From assembly GCA_020852275.1 (NCBI GenBank), contig JADZBE010000039.1, forward strand, positions 62,001-126,000: a stretch of 64,000 nucleotides of DNA, given 5' to 3'. Within the stretch, counting starts at the first letter, position 1; each line of letters begins with the position of its first letter. The DNA comes from Phycisphaerales bacterium. Its GTDB lineage: Bacteria; Planctomycetota; Phycisphaerae; UBA1845. Below are positions 36,554 through 46,099 of the stretch, piece by piece. Under the pieces are notes generated by a model. That model did not search any database. It was not told where the DNA came from and worked only from the letters and a program-made list of their open reading frames with translations. The translations under genes and the position numbers were made by a program.

Positions 36554-37687
36554 CTACGACGTACTGCGGAGCTTCTTGATCGCTTCCATTAACCGCATCC
36601 CATCACCCCATGACAAGTCCGCCCCCTGGAATTCCTGTCGATAGAGCCCCTGCAGGTTCGAGGGAACTTTTACACCTTTTTCCCAAAGCAGAATCACGCT
36701 CCTGGCATAGAGCACGAAGGCGGCACCAATTTCGATGAGAACATTCGGGTTGATCTCGCTAGCGGGATTCGTATCCATATGACCTGTGGCGGATGTGTCG
36801 TCGCGCGTAACGCAAATGATTGCCGCGTTGCATTTGCGCATCGCATCAGCCACCTTCTCTGGGACGGGAATCGCGGTTGCTGCCTCCTCGACCGCTATCT
36901 CGAACTCGACTTCAGCGACATTCAGCATTGATTTCACTTGGTCGACGATCGCTCGATTCTTCCCGTGGGAGATAAACACGCGCGTTCGGGCATCCTTCTC
37001 CCTTTCGAACGGCCGAGCCATTCCAGCTCCATGGGGCGCGGAAAGCTCATCCTCCTCCTCAGGGACATCCTGCTGACACTTCGGATCCAATTGATCCTCA
37101 CCAACATCTTCCGATGATGCACCGGATATCGTGGTCGCGGTGCCTTGGAGATCGACGTAGTGATTTCCTTTGATTTCCCGGAGCAAACCGAGCATCCTGG
37201 CGCCTTCCTCTAGGACCTTCAGAGCCCGAAGAGTTGCCTCGTGTGGCACACCTAATTCTGCCAGCACGTTTCTAGCGATATCTTCACGTGGCAACCTTGC
37301 GCCGTCGTATCGCGAAAGGAACTCTCCCAACACACGCGGGCGCAGAAAGGCTTCTCGCATCGCCTTCATGTCATCACCTTCCGCTGTGGGAGCGACGACC
37401 CGTTTCCCAAGCGGAGTGAGCACGATCTGAGCAGCATTGTAACCGCCGTCCGTTAGTCCGTACGCGATGGAGGATCCGCATAGCATGCGAAAGGACGCCG
37501 TCGTTGGTTGAACGCCCAAGGCTTGGGCGATCTGAACGGGTCGCGCTGGCTTATACCCGAAGTTTTCAGCCAACGCTCTCGATATCTTCGTAGCCTCCCG
37601 AAGAGGGAAGAGCGGGACGTCCGCCTGAGAAAGATACTTCCGCCCTGACGGGTCTCGCTTCGTTTCCAATTTGCTTTTGCGCGCCAT
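36554..37687 (-). CDS. Winged-helix protein with C-terminal TIR-like nucleotide-binding domain
   Basis: The protein has 377 residues; start ATG 37687 follows GAGGAG. Residues 20-185 look like one or two winged-helix modules (RPVQIAQALGVQPTTASFRM; REDIARNVLAELGVPHEATL). An acidic linker (190-225) leads to a TIR-like domain at about 235-355: RVFISHGKNRAIVDQ, IPVPEKVADAM with Glu277 at the usual catalytic position, AAIICVTRDD and NPNVLIEIGAAFVLY. This matches the family described as predicted nucleotide-binding proteins with a TIR-like domain, which includes NAD-degrading effectors of cyclic-nucleotide defence systems. No nucleotide cyclase is nearby. The winged-helix part may sense a signal or repress the operon it forms with hicA. 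Confidence 0.85.
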   Translation of the reverse strand: MARKSKLETKRDPSGRKYLSQADVPLFPLREATKISRALAENFGYKPARPVQIAQALGVQPTTASFRMLCGSSIAYGLTDGGYNAAQIVLTPLGKRVVAPTAEGDDMKAMREAFLRPRVLGEFLSRYDGARLPREDIARNVLAELGVPHEATLRALKVLEEGARMLGLLREIKGNHYVDLQGTATTISGASSEDVGEDQLDPKCQQDVPEEEDELSAPHGAGMARPFEREKDARTRVFISHGKNRAIVDQVKSMLNVAEVEFEIAVEEAATAIPVPEKVADAMRKCNAAIICVTRDDTSATGHMDTNPASEINPNVLIEIGAAFVLYARSVILLWEKGVKVPSNLQGLYRQEFQGADLSWGDGMRLMEAIKKLRSTS

Positions 37688-39109: not shown

Positions 39110-39622
39110 TCATCCGGCGCTCGAACTCCCGCCATGCAGCAGGCGAAGTTCAGCGATGTCGGCGAGATCCTGCGGTCGGCCCGCCTGGCGCTTGAGGCGC
39201 AGCGAAGTTTCCAGTCGTGCGATGCGGAGCGGAACGCCCGGCGCGAGTTCCTCGACGAGCGCGGCCCGGTATTCGCGCTCGAAATCAAAAGGCTCGGTGA
39301 CGAACATGTCGACGGGCGTCTCGCGGTGCCGGTCGCAATGAAAACTGAGGACGGTCATGCCTTTCTCAGCGATCCAGCGCGCCCGCTGGGCGGGGTCGGC
39401 AAGTCCTTCCGCGGTGACCGGGACGCGCGGCTGATACCCGAGTTCGGCCAGCGCCCGAAACGCTTTGCGGAGGGTCTCACCCTCAAGGCGCACGACCAGG
39501 TTCATGTCCAGCGTCTGACGCCCGTATCCGTGGGCTACGACAGCCATGCCGCCGACGACGATGAAAGGAACTAGCGCCCGGTTCAGGGCCCGAACCACTT
39601 GCTCGATGCTTGTGAGCTTCAT
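39110..39622 (-). CDS. MNT/AbiEii-like nucleotidyltransferase
   Basis: The protein has 170 residues from ATG 39622; the frame extends upstream through a repeat and is not used. It has a minimal nucleotidyltransferase fold: VPFIVVGGMAVVAHGYGRQT, LDMNLVVRLEG, and a third strand VDMFVTEPFDF. The usual pair D-x-D in the second motif is D-x-N here (LDMNLV), so the first Asp is kept and the second is Asn. The end has the helix LKRQAGRPQDLADIAELRLL typical of such proteins. Activity may be altered. The partner gene follows after 55 bp. Confidence 0.85.
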   Translation of the reverse strand: MKLTSIEQVVRALNRALVPFIVVGGMAVVAHGYGRQTLDMNLVVRLEGETLRKAFRALAELGYQPRVPVTAEGLADPAQRARWIAEKGMTVLSFHCDRHRETPVDMFVTEPFDFEREYRAALVEELAPGVPLRIARLETSLRLKRQAGRPQDLADIAELRLLHGGSSSAG

Positions 39623-40172
39623 GCGTGTGTCAGCAACCCTGCGATCTTCCCCGCTGCGCCAGGCGATCAGGTTCCCTTGCGCCGTCCGATCATACCCTTT
39701 CGACTGTGCTGGAACCAACCGACCCGCGGCTCGGCGCGACAGGCTGGCCGCGGCTGCGCTATCAGTCCGTGGTGAACGGAGGCGCACGTCATTCCCGTGA
39801 AGGCGGGAATCCAGCTTCGTCATTCCCGCGCAGGCAGGAATCCTGCCCGCGGCTTGCGAGGAGGCACAATTCCCACGGTTTCCCTGGGCGGACTGGACCC
39901 GCGCCTGCGCGGGGGTGACGGACCCCATGTCCAGTTCAGAGTTCCCCAACGGACTGTTACCCTCGCTGGCGCTACGGGTTCGGATGGACGCCGGTGCGAC
40001 GGGGCGGCCAGCGAGCCGGGCCCCTTGACTTGCTTTCCCTTTGGTGATATATAGGTCTTAGAAGAGGATGGGAACAGCCGCCCGCGAATTGCGTGGTGCT
40101 GCCCCGCGTTCTTCGTCGCCTAGGAGGTCCGCCCGTGACCCGAACAGGCCGCCCGCTGCGTAGCAAACATAT
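39623..40172. repeat. Intergenic region with a 103-bp element (copy A)
   Basis: A full element covers 39818-39920, starting CGTCATTCCCGCGCAGGCAG and ending GCGCGGGGGTGACG. A 30-bp half copy precedes it at 39788-39817. The two ends are inverted repeats of about 28 bp. Equal-length copies lie at 60646-60748 and 63009-63111. The remainder to 40172 has no gene I can support. Confidence 0.75.
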
Positions 40173-40252
40173 GGTCATCCGGTCATCCGGTCATCCGGTC
40201 ATCCGGTCATCCGGTCATCGGGTCATCCGGTCATCTGGTCCGCCGGTCATTG
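40173..40252. repeat. 8-bp tandem repeat GGTCATCC, ten units
   Basis: Ten consecutive 8-bp units, most exactly GGTCATCC and the last few altered, lie about 130 bp before the cysteine-rich protein gene. There is no coding frame with support across it. Such arrays vary in copy number between strains. Confidence 0.85.
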
Positions 40253-40382: not shown

Positions 40383-42368
40383 GTGTTCTTTTTCCTTTCC
40401 GCGCACGTTGGATTTCCGACGGCGCGCTTTGCGGGGCGACACCTTGTGTTTCCGGCTGCCGCGGCGATGGCTCAGGAGGGCGAGTCCTTCGGCGGGGGCG
40501 ATCCGTGCTACGAAGGCGGCGGCGGCCCTCCGACGGAGAACGGCACCGGCGGAGGCTGCTGCCCGAACGACCGCTGCTGCAACGGCGCGCCGCCGGAATG
40601 CTGCGAGAGTCCGGACCCCTGCTGCCTCCCCGACGACCCCTGCTGCGGCAACCCGGACCGATGCTGCAATCCTGACAATCCATGTTGCGAAAGCCCGGAC
40701 CCATGTTGCAATCCGGGCGACGAGTGCTGCAACGACCCGGATCGCTGCTGCAACGACGACAACCCGTGTTGTGGAAGTTCCGACCCATGCTGCAACTCCA
40801 GCGATCCCTGCTGCGGCGATTCCAACCGATGCTGCAACGACGACAACCCATGCTGCGGAAGCCCCGACCCCTGTTGCAATTCGAGTGATCCGTGCTGCGG
40901 CAATCCGGATCGCTGCTGCAATGACGACAACCCATGCTGTGGAAGCCCCGATCCCTGCTGCAATCCAGACGATCCCTGTTGCGGAAACTCCGATCCGTGT
41001 TGCAACCCGGACAACCCTTGCTGCGGCATCTACTGCAGTGACGAGGATCCATGCACTGACGACCTCTGCGATCCTCTGACCGGCGAATGCGTGTTTGAGC
41101 CCAAGGACTGCGACGACGATGATCCATGCACGGAAGACTCCTGCGACCCCGAGACCGGGGAATGCATAAACGAATGCGGCGGTGATAGCGGGATCGGACT
41201 GGAGGACTGCGGCATCCAAATCCGGGTGCTCGAAATCACGTTTCTCAACGACCACCAGGTTTACGCCGAGACGGAACCGGGAGGCTGGGGTGACGGGAAT
41301 GCACTGACTCCGCCCGATTGGCGATCGGAGAATAACCCGGATCATCCAGTTTCCTACAAGCGTCGGGATCGGTTGAGCATGTCAGTTAAGCTCGAAGTAA
41401 CGTACACAGAGTCGGATCAGGCGACCTTGAAAGTCAGAACCTCGCCTATGGACTTGAGCGGAATCTGCGCGATACCTCTGGTTTGCGGGAAGAAAGTCGT
41501 CACGGTGAACATTTCAACGACGGATGGACCGCCTGGATCGGGGGGGCGGCTTCCGGACTATGTTCGATGCCAAGGGCAACATTGCACCGAAGGTCGGATT
41601 GCGCTCGAGTGGCTAATTCAATGGCCCGGCGCATCCGAATTCGTTCCAGCCGGCGCCACATCCCATGATCTGTATGTAACTTATCGCGCGCCCAATGCAG
41701 AGCGACCTACGCGGCAACGCCTCGGAATGGTGTGTGGTGCGGCGCACGGTTGGGGGTCGCCAGCGAGCATCGCGGATCGAGTTCACCAGCGACTTGACGC
41801 GGATCCGCCGCATGACGGGCACAGCGCAGGGAACAGCGTCGACGATTGGCGGATCATGAGTGGGGTTCCTTACAGCGGCGAATGCGATGAGCAAGCTCGA
41901 TTCATGGTGCGTTGTCTAAAGCTCTTGGGTGTGCCGGGCTCCTCGGTGTACTTCACATTCGCATCGTCGGACTGTGATCCTCAAAACGAAGAGCGGCGCC
42001 TCGCGAGCGATGCTGGCATAACGTGGGATCTTGACTCTGACGGCATAGTCGGGGAGGAGCAAGTTGAACTTCGATTTGACTTCGACGGGGGTGCGGGCAC
42101 GAACATCAACGCCTTCGAAGGCTCAGTTGCATTGGCGGCAACCCCTTCTCGCTACTACGCCGTCTGGCCAAGCCTTGCCGCATCCACACGGTGTGGGCTT
42201 CTGCTTGAATTGCGAGATCGAGCCAGCGCTGTTCAGTGTTGGGTATGTTATGATTGCGGCAGCACACAGCAGGAGCAAGAAAGCAACCGCTGGGTTCCGA
42301 TACGCGACCCGAACACGGGCGCGCTGGTTACCGCCCCTTTCCCGACTTGTGGTCAGTCGTGCCCGTAA
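40383..42368 (+). CDS. Secreted protein with Cys-Cys heptad array and degenerate transglutaminase-like domain
   Basis: The protein has 661 residues from a GTG at 40383 with a hydrophobic leader (VFFFLSAHVGF...FPAAAAMAQ). Residues 59-214 hold 23 CC pairs; twenty repeat exactly every seven residues as CC-x5 with Asp, Asn, Pro and Ser (CCGSPDPCCNSSDPCCGNPD). Residues 215-265 are two copies of DPCT-DD-CDP-TGEC. A domain of about 330-660 resembles transglutaminase-like folds, with Cys501 in YSGECDEQARFMVRCLKLLG. The later His and Asp of the triad are not found: the region reads FEGSVALAATPSRYYAVWPS where the paralogue has NHQLVKIAGQYYDPSYG. The array could bind metal or crosslink. The function is unknown. 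Confidence 0.85.
   Translation: MFFFLSAHVGFPTARFAGRHLVFPAAAAMAQEGESFGGGDPCYEGGGGPPTENGTGGGCCPNDRCCNGAPPECCESPDPCCLPDDPCCGNPDRCCNPDNPCCESPDPCCNPGDECCNDPDRCCNDDNPCCGSSDPCCNSSDPCCGDSNRCCNDDNPCCGSPDPCCNSSDPCCGNPDRCCNDDNPCCGSPDPCCNPDDPCCGNSDPCCNPDNPCCGIYCSDEDPCTDDLCDPLTGECVFEPKDCDDDDPCTEDSCDPETGECINECGGDSGIGLEDCGIQIRVLEITFLNDHQVYAETEPGGWGDGNALTPPDWRSENNPDHPVSYKRRDRLSMSVKLEVTYTESDQATLKVRTSPMDLSGICAIPLVCGKKVVTVNISTTDGPPGSGGRLPDYVRCQGQHCTEGRIALEWLIQWPGASEFVPAGATSHDLYVTYRAPNAERPTRQRLGMVCGAAHGWGSPASIADRVHQRLDADPPHDGHSAGNSVDDWRIMSGVPYSGECDEQARFMVRCLKLLGVPGSSVYFTFASSDCDPQNEERRLASDAGITWDLDSDGIVGEEQVELRFDFDGGAGTNINAFEGSVALAATPSRYYAVWPSLAASTRCGLLLELRDRASAVQCWVCYDCGSTQQEQESNRWVPIRDPNTGALVTAPFPTCGQSCP
40557..41024 (+). 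repeat. 21-bp/84-bp coding repeat of the Cys-Cys array
   Basis: The Cys-Cys region has a 21-bp period. It also has a higher-order unit of four heptads (84 bp) that recurs about four times: CC-NDDNP, CC-GSPDP, CC-NSSDP, CC-GNPDR. Codon choices within units vary (TGTTGC, TGCTGC, TGTTGT), so this is maintained protein sequence, not a recent DNA duplication alone. Confidence 0.85.
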
Positions 42369-42404
42369 TGCTTGTGTTTCGTAGACCTTCGGAGATCCAT
42401 CATC

Positions 42405-43403
42405 ATGTCACTTTTTTCACGAATCGCTACTCGACTGTGTTGCTTTGGATCGCTGATGGCTTTCGGCGTCGGGTGGTGTCCGGTGAGGGGACAGGGGCAG
42501 ACCATGCCGGCCACGGCGTCTGAGTCCTTCTGTGCTCCGCAGGCGCGAACGCAAGGCGATCGCAGAGCGCCAACGACATCCGGCACACTTGCCCTTGATC
42601 CATTCTGCTTCCAACAATTGCCTTCCAGCCCGCTTGCCTGGCAACAGGAACCGGTGTCCGACGCGGCGTCCGCAGAGCATTATTCAACAGCACTGAGGGC
42701 GGAACTCACTCGGCTGTCGCCTTTTGATACAAAGGTCGGGCAACGAATTCGCGGTGTCGTTCCTGTTGAAGATGTCGCCTCCGAACTTCGCGAGGATGTC
42801 CGTCGCCTTTGGGAGCGCCTGCTGAGTCCGAAGTATTTTCCAGAACCTGATCAACAAGTCGAGTGGCGCGCCGTCCTCTGGTCTCAAGTGAATTGGGAGC
42901 CTCCGCGGCCGCACAGCAAGGACCCCACACCGCCGCGAATGAACGATTATCTGGCGAGGTGGACCGCCTGTGACACTGTCGTCGTAGCCGCCTGCGTCCA
43001 GCGCGAGAACGGCCCGCTGGATGGTCTGAGAATCACCATTACGTTGAAGGGCGACGAGCGCATCCAATGTCAATATCCGACGGCCACGGATGCGGTGAAT
43101 CAGAAGTTTGACAGACGGCGGAACAGCGGGCGCGTGCCGGTCAAAGACATTGACAAACAGCGCCTCTTGAATGTTCTCACGAGGGTTTTCCGATTCCCCT
43201 GGGAGACGAAGGCGGATTTCATTGTGACTTGGGATCCCAGTCCGACCAGCGGGGGAGATTTGCACATTGAATCCAGCCGCATTCATGAGGAAGGCGCTGA
43301 CAGGCAGTGGTTTGACGAAGTTGGGCTGGACCTTGAGGACGCCGGCGACGCGCAGACCCTTTCGATTTCGGCATCGCTACCGAGCCGAGCGCCCGGCGGT
43401 TGA
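42405..43403 (+). CDS. Secreted protein of unknown function
   Basis: The protein has 332 residues; start ATG 42405 follows GGAG. A signal peptide (MSLFSRIATRLCCFGSLMAF) precedes a mixed alpha/beta protein with VEWRAVLWSQVNWEPPRPHS, RWTACDTVVVAACVQREN and FPWETKADFIVTWDPSPTSG. I recognise no family. Base composition is lower in GC than the flagellar region. Its stop codon overlaps the next gene's start by one base (TGATG), so the two are coupled. Confidence 0.75.
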   Translation: MSLFSRIATRLCCFGSLMAFGVGWCPVRGQGQTMPATASESFCAPQARTQGDRRAPTTSGTLALDPFCFQQLPSSPLAWQQEPVSDAASAEHYSTALRAELTRLSPFDTKVGQRIRGVVPVEDVASELREDVRRLWERLLSPKYFPEPDQQVEWRAVLWSQVNWEPPRPHSKDPTPPRMNDYLARWTACDTVVVAACVQRENGPLDGLRITITLKGDERIQCQYPTATDAVNQKFDRRRNSGRVPVKDIDKQRLLNVLTRVFRFPWETKADFIVTWDPSPTSGGDLHIESSRIHEEGADRQWFDEVGLDLEDAGDAQTLSISASLPSRAPGG

Positions 43404-45091
43404 TGGCCGAGAACGACGACTTCGACGAGAACAAGGGCGACCCTAACGTGCAGCGCAACCCGGATGATGACGATGTTTCGCCGGCGTTCGAGAACGGCCT
43501 GTCGATGGTGACGGACGACCTGGTTCCGCTGTCGCGCGTCATTCTGCCGGCAGGGGACGCACTGCTCGATGGGGCGACGGTTACGCTGACGAAAGTGGGC
43601 GGGTCGGGCACGGTGCGCGTGCTGGCGATCCATCCGAATCCCGAGCTTCCGCTGACGGACGACTGGGTTGAAGTTTCGCTGGGCGCGAACCTGCGCGACA
43701 ATTTCTTCCTGTCCACCGGGCCGTACAAATCGTTCAACTGGTACGCAGAGGGGCTGACCTTCGGCGAGGTAACACTGGAGCTGAAGTTCGAGAACGGCCC
43801 GATGCGCGTCAAGGACAGGGTCGTGCTGTCGGTGGTGGATTTGGATGTCGTCGAGCTGACGTTCACGGGGGCAACGGGCGAGTATTTCGTGGTGAAGAAG
43901 GACGACGGCTCCGGCGACTACGGCACGCCGCACTGGAAAGACGCCAACCGCGACGGCGATGCCAACGACACCGGCCCGCCGGCCGACAACCGATTCCCGG
44001 CCGCGTATCTGCGCGACAAAAACCCGCAGGTGACAGCGGTTAAGATCGTTTATGAGCCACAGGGCATCCTCAGTGGTCCGGTTCGCGTGCTTGGCGATGG
44101 GCCGAACCTGCTGGACTTTCAACAAGACTTGACGGCCACCGGTTCCCAGATGGTCACCAGCGACATTACGGCGCAGAGCAAATTCGCCAACGAGATCGAT
44201 TTCTTCTGGCCGATGAACATCGACTGGCGCGTATCCAAGGACAGCGGAACCGTCTGGCTCGACGCGGGACGGACCAGCACGCAGGTGTACGTGACGCTGG
44301 GAACGCCGAACACCGGCTCGCGCTACCATACCCTGCTGCACAACTCCTGCCGCGACGCGGACGGGAAGACAGCGAACGCCGACGTGATTTCCGCCATCTG
44401 GGGCGACTTTACGGATCAGGCCGTGTACCGCGCAGACCCCAAAGGCCTGACGGATGGAACGCAATTGACGTATTACGACAACTGGACAGTTTCGTACGTG
44501 ACCACTGCTGATCTTCTCAAGCACGGCGACGGCCAATGCTATGCGTGGGCGCAATTGTTCATTAATCTGCTGGGTGCTCAAGGAGTCAATCAGCAGAACG
44601 ACTATGTGAATCTGACTGCGGCAACGGCTGACGGGTTCCTTGTGAAGGACTGGAGCTTTCCTGGTGGCAATGGAATAAGCGGGCATTCAACGTATCCGTT
44701 CCTGAACCTTCCGCAATCATTCCAAACCTTCATCAACCAAAGCTCGTATCTCTGGCGGTTTGCGGAGGTTACGGATAGCACCGGCGTCCCGGGTCAGGGG
44801 ACGGACAACCCGCTTTCATGCTTTAGCAACCATCAATTGGTTAAAATCGCAGGGCAATATTACGACCCCAGCTATGGCAAGGTTTACGCATCGCTGGCAG
44901 ATTTTGATGCCCAAGCCATCAGCGGCTATGTGCTGGGGGCATCGAGCTGGCTTGTGAACGAGCCGGACGTTGGGTTGGATCTCAATGGGAACGGAAACCA
45001 GACTGACATGGGCGTGCCAACGGATTCGTTTCTGATACAAAAAAACCCGTCTGGAAACGACCTGTCGGAGACAGTCACCGATTACCCTTAA
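43403..45091 (+). CDS. Transglutaminase-like protein with intact Cys-His-Asp triad
   Basis: The protein has 562 residues from ATG 43403. It begins with an acidic segment (MAENDDFDENKGDPNVQ...DDDD), then several beta-rich domains. A transglutaminase-like domain follows, with Cys379 (HGDGQCYAWAQLFINLLGAQ), His477 (CFSNHQLVKIAG) and Asp488 (YYDPSYG). The segment before it (AGRTSTQVYVTLGTPNTGSR) aligns with AGATSHDLYVTYRAPNAERP in the cysteine-rich protein, so they are paralogues. It lacks a signal peptide with this start; an N-terminal part may be lost. It could form isopeptide bonds or act as a cysteine protease outside the cell. Confidence 0.8.
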   Translation: MAENDDFDENKGDPNVQRNPDDDDVSPAFENGLSMVTDDLVPLSRVILPAGDALLDGATVTLTKVGGSGTVRVLAIHPNPELPLTDDWVEVSLGANLRDNFFLSTGPYKSFNWYAEGLTFGEVTLELKFENGPMRVKDRVVLSVVDLDVVELTFTGATGEYFVVKKDDGSGDYGTPHWKDANRDGDANDTGPPADNRFPAAYLRDKNPQVTAVKIVYEPQGILSGPVRVLGDGPNLLDFQQDLTATGSQMVTSDITAQSKFANEIDFFWPMNIDWRVSKDSGTVWLDAGRTSTQVYVTLGTPNTGSRYHTLLHNSCRDADGKTANADVISAIWGDFTDQAVYRADPKGLTDGTQLTYYDNWTVSYVTTADLLKHGDGQCYAWAQLFINLLGAQGVNQQNDYVNLTAATADGFLVKDWSFPGGNGISGHSTYPFLNLPQSFQTFINQSSYLWRFAEVTDSTGVPGQGTDNPLSCFSNHQLVKIAGQYYDPSYGKVYASLADFDAQAISGYVLGASSWLVNEPDVGLDLNGNGNQTDMGVPTDSFLIQKNPSGNDLSETVTDYP

Positions 45092-45106: not shown

Positions 45107-46099
45107 ATGACAACTCACATGCTGCAGATTTTGATTATGGCACGCGGCATCCTTCTATCAACGTCCCTTGCCTTGTTGGAATCGCCGGTTGTCCAAGCGC
45201 AACCTGATTCCCTTGTCTTAGAACGTATTGTGATTAGAAGCAGCAAGGCGTGGACTTTCTGCTGTGCGCAGGAACCCATGTTCGGGAAGCCGCTCTTGGT
45301 AATTGCCTCGCAATTGGAAGTGGAGATGTTTGATGTTTTCGGTGGTTCGCAACCACTCTCCGATCCCCATTTTCGATGGACTATCGGAGAGGATGTAGCA
45401 TTCGTGACGAGGTCGGTGAATCACCTTGGAAGTTGCAGTGTAACGAGATATCCGCTGTTCGCATTGATTCATCCTCCACCTGCCTCAGCTTGGCCATTTG
45501 ACGACGCGAAAGTAAGTTCAAAGTGGATTAGTCCTCAGACGGGTAGGGTGGATCTGGATTTTGGAACCGTCTTCCCATATGAGCTCGTCAAAAAACATGG
45601 GGTTGTGTGGACCCAAGATGGAAAGGCCGGAAGCGTCCCCAGGTCGAGGAGCGAGGCGGTGTTCCTCGATATCTTGGGGCAATCAAGGACATCCGTTCGA
45701 CTCTTCATTACGATCGATGATGACTTGTCAATTTGGGACAAAGATGGAAGTAGCTGGCGATTAATCAAGGATCACGCCGGGACTATCAAGGGGCCATTCT
45801 TCGCGACCGATCAGGGGAGGTCATTTGTTGGCACCCAAGAGGACGATTGGGGGGTATTCAGTAAAGGCGGTGAAAGTCAACTGCGGTTTACCTCGCTCGT
45901 CCAACGCCATGAGAGCGAGCCGTTGCTCCTCGTCGAGGATCGCGACGCCAGCGTCAACTACTTTGTGTTCAACGGCGTGATTCTGGATCAGAACGGGGAA
46001 GCCTTGGAGCGACTGCCGGGGCGGCAGTCTGCCGAGGAGCGACTCTCGCACATCCTGCGCTTCGCCCTTGATCGGCGCCCCGAGAAGAAGGATCCCTGA
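45107..46099 (+). CDS. Secreted protein of unknown function
   Basis: The protein has 330 residues with a signal peptide (ILIMARGILLSTSLALLESP, cleavage after QAQ likely). The rest is beta-rich with two short repeats, VFLDILGQSRTSVRLFITID and FFATDQGRSFVGTQEDDWGV, suggesting strands of a propeller or sandwich. I do not recognise the family. It is 15 bp after the transglutaminase gene and follows it in the same direction, so they form one unit. GC content is clearly lower than the window average. Confidence 0.75.
   Translation: MTTHMLQILIMARGILLSTSLALLESPVVQAQPDSLVLERIVIRSSKAWTFCCAQEPMFGKPLLVIASQLEVEMFDVFGGSQPLSDPHFRWTIGEDVAFVTRSVNHLGSCSVTRYPLFALIHPPPASAWPFDDAKVSSKWISPQTGRVDLDFGTVFPYELVKKHGVVWTQDGKAGSVPRSRSEAVFLDILGQSRTSVRLFITIDDDLSIWDKDGSSWRLIKDHAGTIKGPFFATDQGRSFVGTQEDDWGVFSKGGESQLRFTSLVQRHESEPLLLVEDRDASVNYFVFNGVILDQNGEALERLPGRQSAEERLSHILRFALDRRPEKKDP

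What the first reader, a model, noticed from the sequence alone, without database searches (positions are those of the whole stretch)
40383..42368. Cys-Cys heptad array fused to a degenerate transglutaminase-like domain
The sequence shows 23 Cys-Cys pairs in 156 residues, twenty with an exact seven-residue period, set in an Asp/Asn/Pro/Ser background and preceded by a signal-like leader. A higher-order 28-residue unit recurs four times. I know no described family with this architecture. Possible roles are metal binding, disulfide-rigid surface rods or crosslink substrates; these are inference.
Basis: partly seen in the sequence, partly recalled or inferred. Interest (0 to 1): 0.85.

Follow-up and report, generated by a model that had tools for sequence, protein, structure and literature searches.

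The report
Disulfide-ladder stalk repeat of Planctomycetota
A bacterium carries a gene for an exported protein whose front part is built from five copies of a 28-residue, cysteine-packed unit; the same unit occurs, mostly in whole-number copies, in a patchy set of relatives on different surface-type domains, which suggests an undescribed cross-linked rod used as a spacer.

Summary
In detail: 23 Cys-Cys pairs lie in residues 59-214 of the 661-aa ORF at 40383-42368(+), with 20 successive seven-residue spacings. The frame is real: against a relative's array pS is 0.88 and pN 0.14. The true unit is 28 residues (four phased heptads), occurring five times here, not four; capped arrays of relatives hold 4, 8, 12 or 20 heptads. 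The array signature was found in 12 of 28 genomes of the window's GTDB family, 2 of 37 others of the order, and none elsewhere in the phylum sample. The array has no Pfam, NCBIfam, PDB, phage or plasmid match. The C-terminal domain is homologous to the neighbour at 43400-45091 and, more distantly, to a protein that weakly matches Transglut_core; array proteins keep the Cys but appear to lack the His and Asp. In five genomes the next gene encodes a roughly 330-aa partner. One relative with the same C-terminus and partner has a TSP3-like linker instead of the array. Best reading: an exported, disulfide-cross-linked rod carrying a pseudo-transglutaminase. Structure prediction gave low confidence; nothing was tested biochemically.

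The parts
40383..42368 (+). CDS: leader + Cys-Cys array + two Dicty_CTDC repeats + degenerate transglutaminase-like domain (661 aa)
   Evidence: frame supported by pS 0.88 / pN 0.14
40383..40472 (+). signal-like leader (residues 1-30); the true start may lie upstream
   Evidence: read from the sequence; no signal-peptide predictor was available
40557..40598 (+). N-cap of the array, CCPNDRCCNGAPPE
   Evidence: counterparts CCNDRCCQGSxCC before the arrays of L156, L158, L160, L165, L168
40599..41024 (+). array: five 28-residue units (20 heptads) plus the closing CC
41034..41102 (+). Dicty_CTDC repeat 1 (PF00526)
   Evidence: 33.7 bits, over the 27-bit cut-off; the two-repeat segment scores E 6.8e-15
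41106..41171 (+). Dicty_CTDC repeat 2 (PF00526)
   Evidence: 31.4 bits, over the 27-bit cut-off
41205..42365 (+). C-terminal domain, degenerate transglutaminase-like; Cys of GEC at 41883-41885, His and Asp apparently absent
42372..43403 (+). partner gene, about 343 aa, function unknown
   Evidence: counterparts follow the same gene in G039, G033 (twice), G019 and G016
43400..45091 (+). paralogous C-terminal domain with apparent Cys, His and Asp (GQC, NHQ, YDPSYG) behind an N-terminal domain of its own
45107..46099 (+). fourth gene of the run; a weakly similar frame lies next to the 43400 homologue in a same-genus genome

Best explanation
The gene encodes an exported protein. Its Cys-Cys region folds, through regular disulfides made outside the cytoplasm, into a rigid rod built in 28-residue steps. 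The rod and the two CTDC repeats act as a stalk or spacer that holds a C-terminal, catalytically dead or altered transglutaminase-like domain away from the cell surface or within an extracellular matrix, probably together with the partner protein from the next gene. Shown: the array, its frame and selection, the 28-residue unit, the mostly whole-number copy counts, the domain shuffling, the homology of the C-terminal domain, the partner gene. Inferred: export, disulfides, rod shape, stalk role, loss of catalysis.
For: Purifying selection on the frame. Phased unit [CCGSxDP][CCNxxDP][CCGxxDR][CCNxDNP]; 21 of 29 NP-NP spacings are multiples of four heptads and 0 of 10000 heptad shuffles reach this; capped runs hold 4, 8, 12 or 20 heptads. 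The Arg closing the third heptad is present in 19 of 23 non-terminal and 1 of 16 terminal units, as directional stacking would give (automatic phasing misassigned a few units). The same array is joined to transglutaminase-like, Big_5, dockerin-like and CTDC-repeat domains and to a metalloprotease-like motif, the behaviour of a spacer. In G016 a protein with the same C-terminal domain and partner gene has DxDxDG (TSP3-like) repeats and few Cys-Cys pairs. CTDC repeats occur in Dictyostelium matrix proteins EcmA/EcmB (PMC4931340). The genome has a VKOR fused to a DsbA-like thioredoxin.
Against: AlphaFold2 gave mean pLDDT 56 for the array and 32 for the C-terminal domain, so no rod was shown. The window C-terminal domain has no direct Pfam hit. 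Relatives with heptad numbers not divisible by four exist, and the G007 and G006 arrays lack the four-heptad phasing. No localisation or redox data. Three same-genus genomes lack the array signature, so the function is dispensable in close relatives.
Confidence: 0.6

Rival explanations
1. The array is a matrix cement: its cysteines form disulfides between molecules, so the protein polymerises into an insoluble surface or wall layer, as proposed for cysteine-rich YTV proteins of other Planctomycetota.
For: Cysteine-rich YTV proteins are found in planctomycete cell-wall preparations and are reported as restricted to Planctomycetales (PMC8567305); CTDC repeats occur in Dictyostelium matrix proteins; very high Cys content (46 in 156 residues).
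Against: Exact spacing, phased units, a cap and mostly whole-unit copy numbers point to an internal fold rather than random cross-linking. No YTV match in 30 relatives, but that search had no positive control. Patchy presence.
Confidence: 0.2
2. The array is a metal-binding or metal-storing region, like a giant metallothionein.
For: 29% Cys and 17% Asp in the array; net charge -26.
Against: Signal-like leader; VKOR-DsbA-like oxidase in the genome; regular CC-x5 spacing with strongly conserved Asp and Pro positions; no metallothionein match.
Confidence: 0.08
3. The array is a neutral, slippage-prone tandem repeat without a specific fold, tolerated in an exported protein.
For: Tandem repetition; present in a minority of relatives.
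Against: Units are 68-81% identical in DNA within the window array, about as different as units compared between genera (64-77%), with synonymous sites near saturation, so this is not recent slippage; the phase pattern is shared between genera.
Confidence: 0.04

Closest known systems
Granulin (PF00396), stacked beta-hairpins pinned by six disulfides
   Same: Cys-Cys pairs at regular short spacing; the granulin fold is a ladder of hairpins (PMC4527844); exported.
   Different: Granulin is a 12-Cys module of about 6 kDa; the array has uniform CC-x5 spacing, an Asp/Asn/Pro background and 28-residue steps. No array locus matched PF00396; weak sub-threshold hits lie elsewhere.
Dicty_CTDC repeat (PF00526) of Dictyostelium matrix proteins
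   Same: Two copies directly follow the array; found in extracellular matrix proteins.
   Different: 24-residue repeat of another Cys pattern; the array itself does not match it.
Transglutaminase-like superfamily (PF01841)
   Same: The C-terminal domain aligns, by a chain of homology, with a protein that matches Transglut_core just below cut-off (20.8 bits, cut-off 23); the Cys at the nucleophile position is kept.
   Different: His and Asp apparently absent in the array proteins; no direct match.
Cysteine-rich YTV cell-wall proteins of Planctomycetales
   Same: Lineage-restricted, cysteine-rich, exported planctomycete proteins (PMC8567305).
   Different: No YTV domain matched in the window protein; different group within the phylum.
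Thrombospondin type 3 repeats
   Same: Such repeats occupy the place of the array in the G016 protein with the same C-terminal domain and partner gene.
   Different: DxDxDG calcium-type loops instead of Cys-Cys heptads; identified by eye, not by a profile hit.

Membership tests
Granulin (PF00396) | 12-Cys granulin profile over the Pfam cut-off | tested here: not met
   No Pfam match to array segments up to E 10; no array locus among the sub-threshold hits in 8 genomes
Dicty_CTDC (PF00526) | Match over the 27-bit gathering cut-off | tested here: met
   33.7 and 31.4 bits at window 41034-41102 and 41106-41171; 55 bits for the segment
Transglutaminase-like (PF01841) | Direct match to Transglut_core | tested here: not met
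   No match for the window C-terminal domain
Transglutaminase-like (PF01841) | Homology through intermediates | tested here: met
   hhalign 97.4%, 1.5e-11 to the 43400 paralogue; 80.5%, 1.3e-5 to the G093 domain, which scores 4.8e-4 against PF01841. hhalign E-values are for a single comparison
Transglutaminase-like (PF01841) | Cys-His-Asp catalytic triad | tested here: not met
   Cys invariant; His and Asp apparently replaced in the array proteins, present in 43400 and L226
YTV cell-wall protein (PF07639) | YTV domain | tested here: not met
   No YTV match in the window protein
Disulfide-bonded rod | Oxidised cysteines and elongated shape | not testable with these tools
   Needs protein; AlphaFold2 model of low confidence
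Metallothionein-like metal binder | Stoichiometric metal binding | not testable with these tools
   Needs protein

The most novel reading that the evidence does not exclude
The array is a new protein repeat fold: a disulfide-stapled solenoid that grows in 28-residue steps, made by one lineage of Planctomycetota as an interchangeable stalk for surface proteins, with a pseudo-transglutaminase and a dedicated partner protein as one of its cargoes.
Probability: 0.45. Interest if true: 0.8.

Novelty: new variant of a known kind. Interest (0 to 1): 0.6.

Why it matters
If the reading is right, this is an undescribed extracellular repeat module with a length quantum, so rod length could be related directly to unit number. 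It would offer a lineage-specific candidate for the old question of how Planctomycetota build cysteine-rich surface or wall proteins, and a simple disulfide scaffold made of only about eleven kinds of amino acid.

Tried and rejected
Phage and plasmid collections: no match. Viral contigs: the protein search found nothing; a DNA pattern found one protein with a real three-heptad stretch, in L198/L199. AlphaFold2 of the array and of the C-terminal domain: too low in confidence for fold searches, which were not run. Own-genome transglutaminases as a profile: too few sequences were picked up to be informative. PDB sequence searches: no relative. Disulfide topology from lost cysteines: one array lost the first Cys of a heptad and the second Cys of the next together, but losses at array ends point both ways; not used. 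YTV search: no positive control rang, so absence was not shown. Similarity of the G028 middle gene to the partner family: not detected.

Full report
What is there. The ORF at 40383-42368(+) encodes 661 residues. Residues 59-214 hold 23 Cys-Cys pairs, with spacings 6, 8 and then 7 twenty times. A five-pair heptad pattern matches 17 times in the window and never in 100 shuffles. Tandem Repeats Finder independently reports an 84-bp period, 5.1 copies. The array uses only eleven kinds of amino acid, is 29% Cys and carries a net charge of -26.

The frame is translated. The array of G025 (L153) also has 20 heptads in its main run, so the two can be compared codon by codon: 51 identical codons, 58 synonymous and 31 non-synonymous differences, pS 0.88, pN 0.14; no other frame gives as strong a contrast. 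Units within the window array are only 68-81% identical in DNA, about as different as units compared between the two genera (64-77%), so the array is not a recent expansion.

The unit is 28 residues. Across 25 heptad runs from 14 genomes, four phased heptads recur: [CCGSxDP][CCNxxDP][CCGxxDR][CCNxDNP]. Of 29 NP-to-NP spacings 21 are multiples of four heptads; 0 of 10000 within-array shuffles reach that, mean 4.0. Where a cap of the type CCNDRCCQGSx precedes the run, the run is usually a whole multiple of four (4, 8, 12, 20). Exceptions exist: G014, G012, G007 and G006 have runs of 19, 15, 7 and 7, and the last two lack the phasing. The Arg that closes the third heptad is present in 19 of 23 non-terminal units and 1 of 16 terminal ones; the automatic phasing misassigned a few units, and I read the difference as a sign of directional stacking, which is inference.

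Distribution. With a DNA signature of three in-register pairs including Asp-Pro, the array is found in 12 of 28 sampled genomes of the window's GTDB family, 2 of 37 others of the order, 0 of 233 others of the class and 0 of 391 others in a phylum-wide draw. A less strict protein search adds family members such as G025 and G035. The three same-genus genomes lack it. One relative's contig is labelled Phycisphaera mikurensis by its depositors, which suggests class Phycisphaerae. One viral contig (L198) carries a three-heptad stretch in a different Cys-rich protein.

Architecture. Behind the array lie two Dicty_CTDC repeats (33.7 and 31.4 bits, cut-off 27; segment E 6.8e-15), which a whole-protein scan had missed. 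The C-terminal domain aligns with the domain of the neighbouring gene 43400-45091 (hhalign 97.4%, 1.5e-11) and with that of a protein in another family of the order (80.5%, 1.3e-5), which itself scores E 4.8e-4, 20.8 bits against a 23-bit cut-off, to Transglut_core. In an 11-sequence alignment the Cys is invariant; the neighbour and L226 keep His and Asp (NHQ..YDPSYG, FHQ..YDPSYG), while the array proteins have NFEGS..YYAVW or the like there. The alignment in that region is gappy, so the loss is likely rather than certain. No direct Pfam or PDB match supports the domain.

Context. Genes 40383, 42372, 43400 and 45107 run in one direction with gaps or overlaps of a few bases. In G039, G033 (twice), G019 and G016 the gene after the one with this C-terminal domain encodes a protein of about 330 residues ending near VTDSDPQY; the window's 42372 product matches that group (hhalign 90.4%, 1.4e-6). 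In G028 a gene of similar size stands there without detectable similarity, followed by a 43400 homologue. In G016 the protein with this C-terminal domain and partner has DxDxDG repeats and only three Cys-Cys pairs. Elsewhere in the family the array is joined to Big_5 and dockerin-like domains, to long CTDC series, and to a protein with a metalloprotease-like motif. The genome encodes a VKOR fused to a DsbA-like thioredoxin, so exported cysteines can be oxidised.

Reading. A module with fixed spacing, a cap, mostly whole-unit copy number and many fusion partners, replaceable by another kind of linker, behaves like a spacer. With 46 cysteines in an exported protein, disulfides are the simplest way to make it rigid. 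Granulin, the best-known Cys-Cys ladder (PMC4527844), is a resemblance only: its profile does not match any array. The YTV proteins are the known cysteine-rich wall proteins of other Planctomycetota (PMC8567305) and the CTDC repeats are known from Dictyostelium matrix proteins (PMC4931340); both make an extracellular structural role plausible without proving it. Searches of the open-access library found no description of this array.

Novelty. Cysteine-rich, repeat-built extracellular linkers are a known kind of thing; this repeat, its 28-residue step and its pairing with a pseudo-transglutaminase and a partner gene are not described in the sources searched. I therefore file it as a new variant of a known kind, and leave open that the fold itself is new.

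Noticed in passing
36554-37687 (-): Gene with a CAP12/Pycsar-type TIR domain (PF10137, E 1.2e-18) matching the PADLOC candidate PDC-S35; a possible anti-phage gene.
   Followed up: partly
40173-40250: About ten copies of the 8-bp repeat GGTCATCC just upstream of the array gene.
   Followed up: no
39110-39949 (-): Weak nucleotidyltransferase-like gene whose relative (46% over 160 aa) lies about 3 kb from another array gene in G016, L167.
   Followed up: no
L198, L199: Viral contigs with a Pro-rich, CxxC-repeat protein that holds a short CCNNTDPCCGSNDPCCGNRDKCC stretch.
   Followed up: partly
L154: A second, shorter array frame without the C-terminal domain lies in the same strand near the intact array gene in G019; it looks like a decayed duplicate.
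   Followed up: no
L161, start of the array protein: Leader with a lipobox-like AMIGC, suggesting that one array protein is a lipoprotein (read by eye).
   Followed up: no
L227:9533-12382: Array protein ending in a HEIAHGLGIDH metalloprotease-like motif; Peptidase_M10 only at E 0.19.
   Followed up: partly
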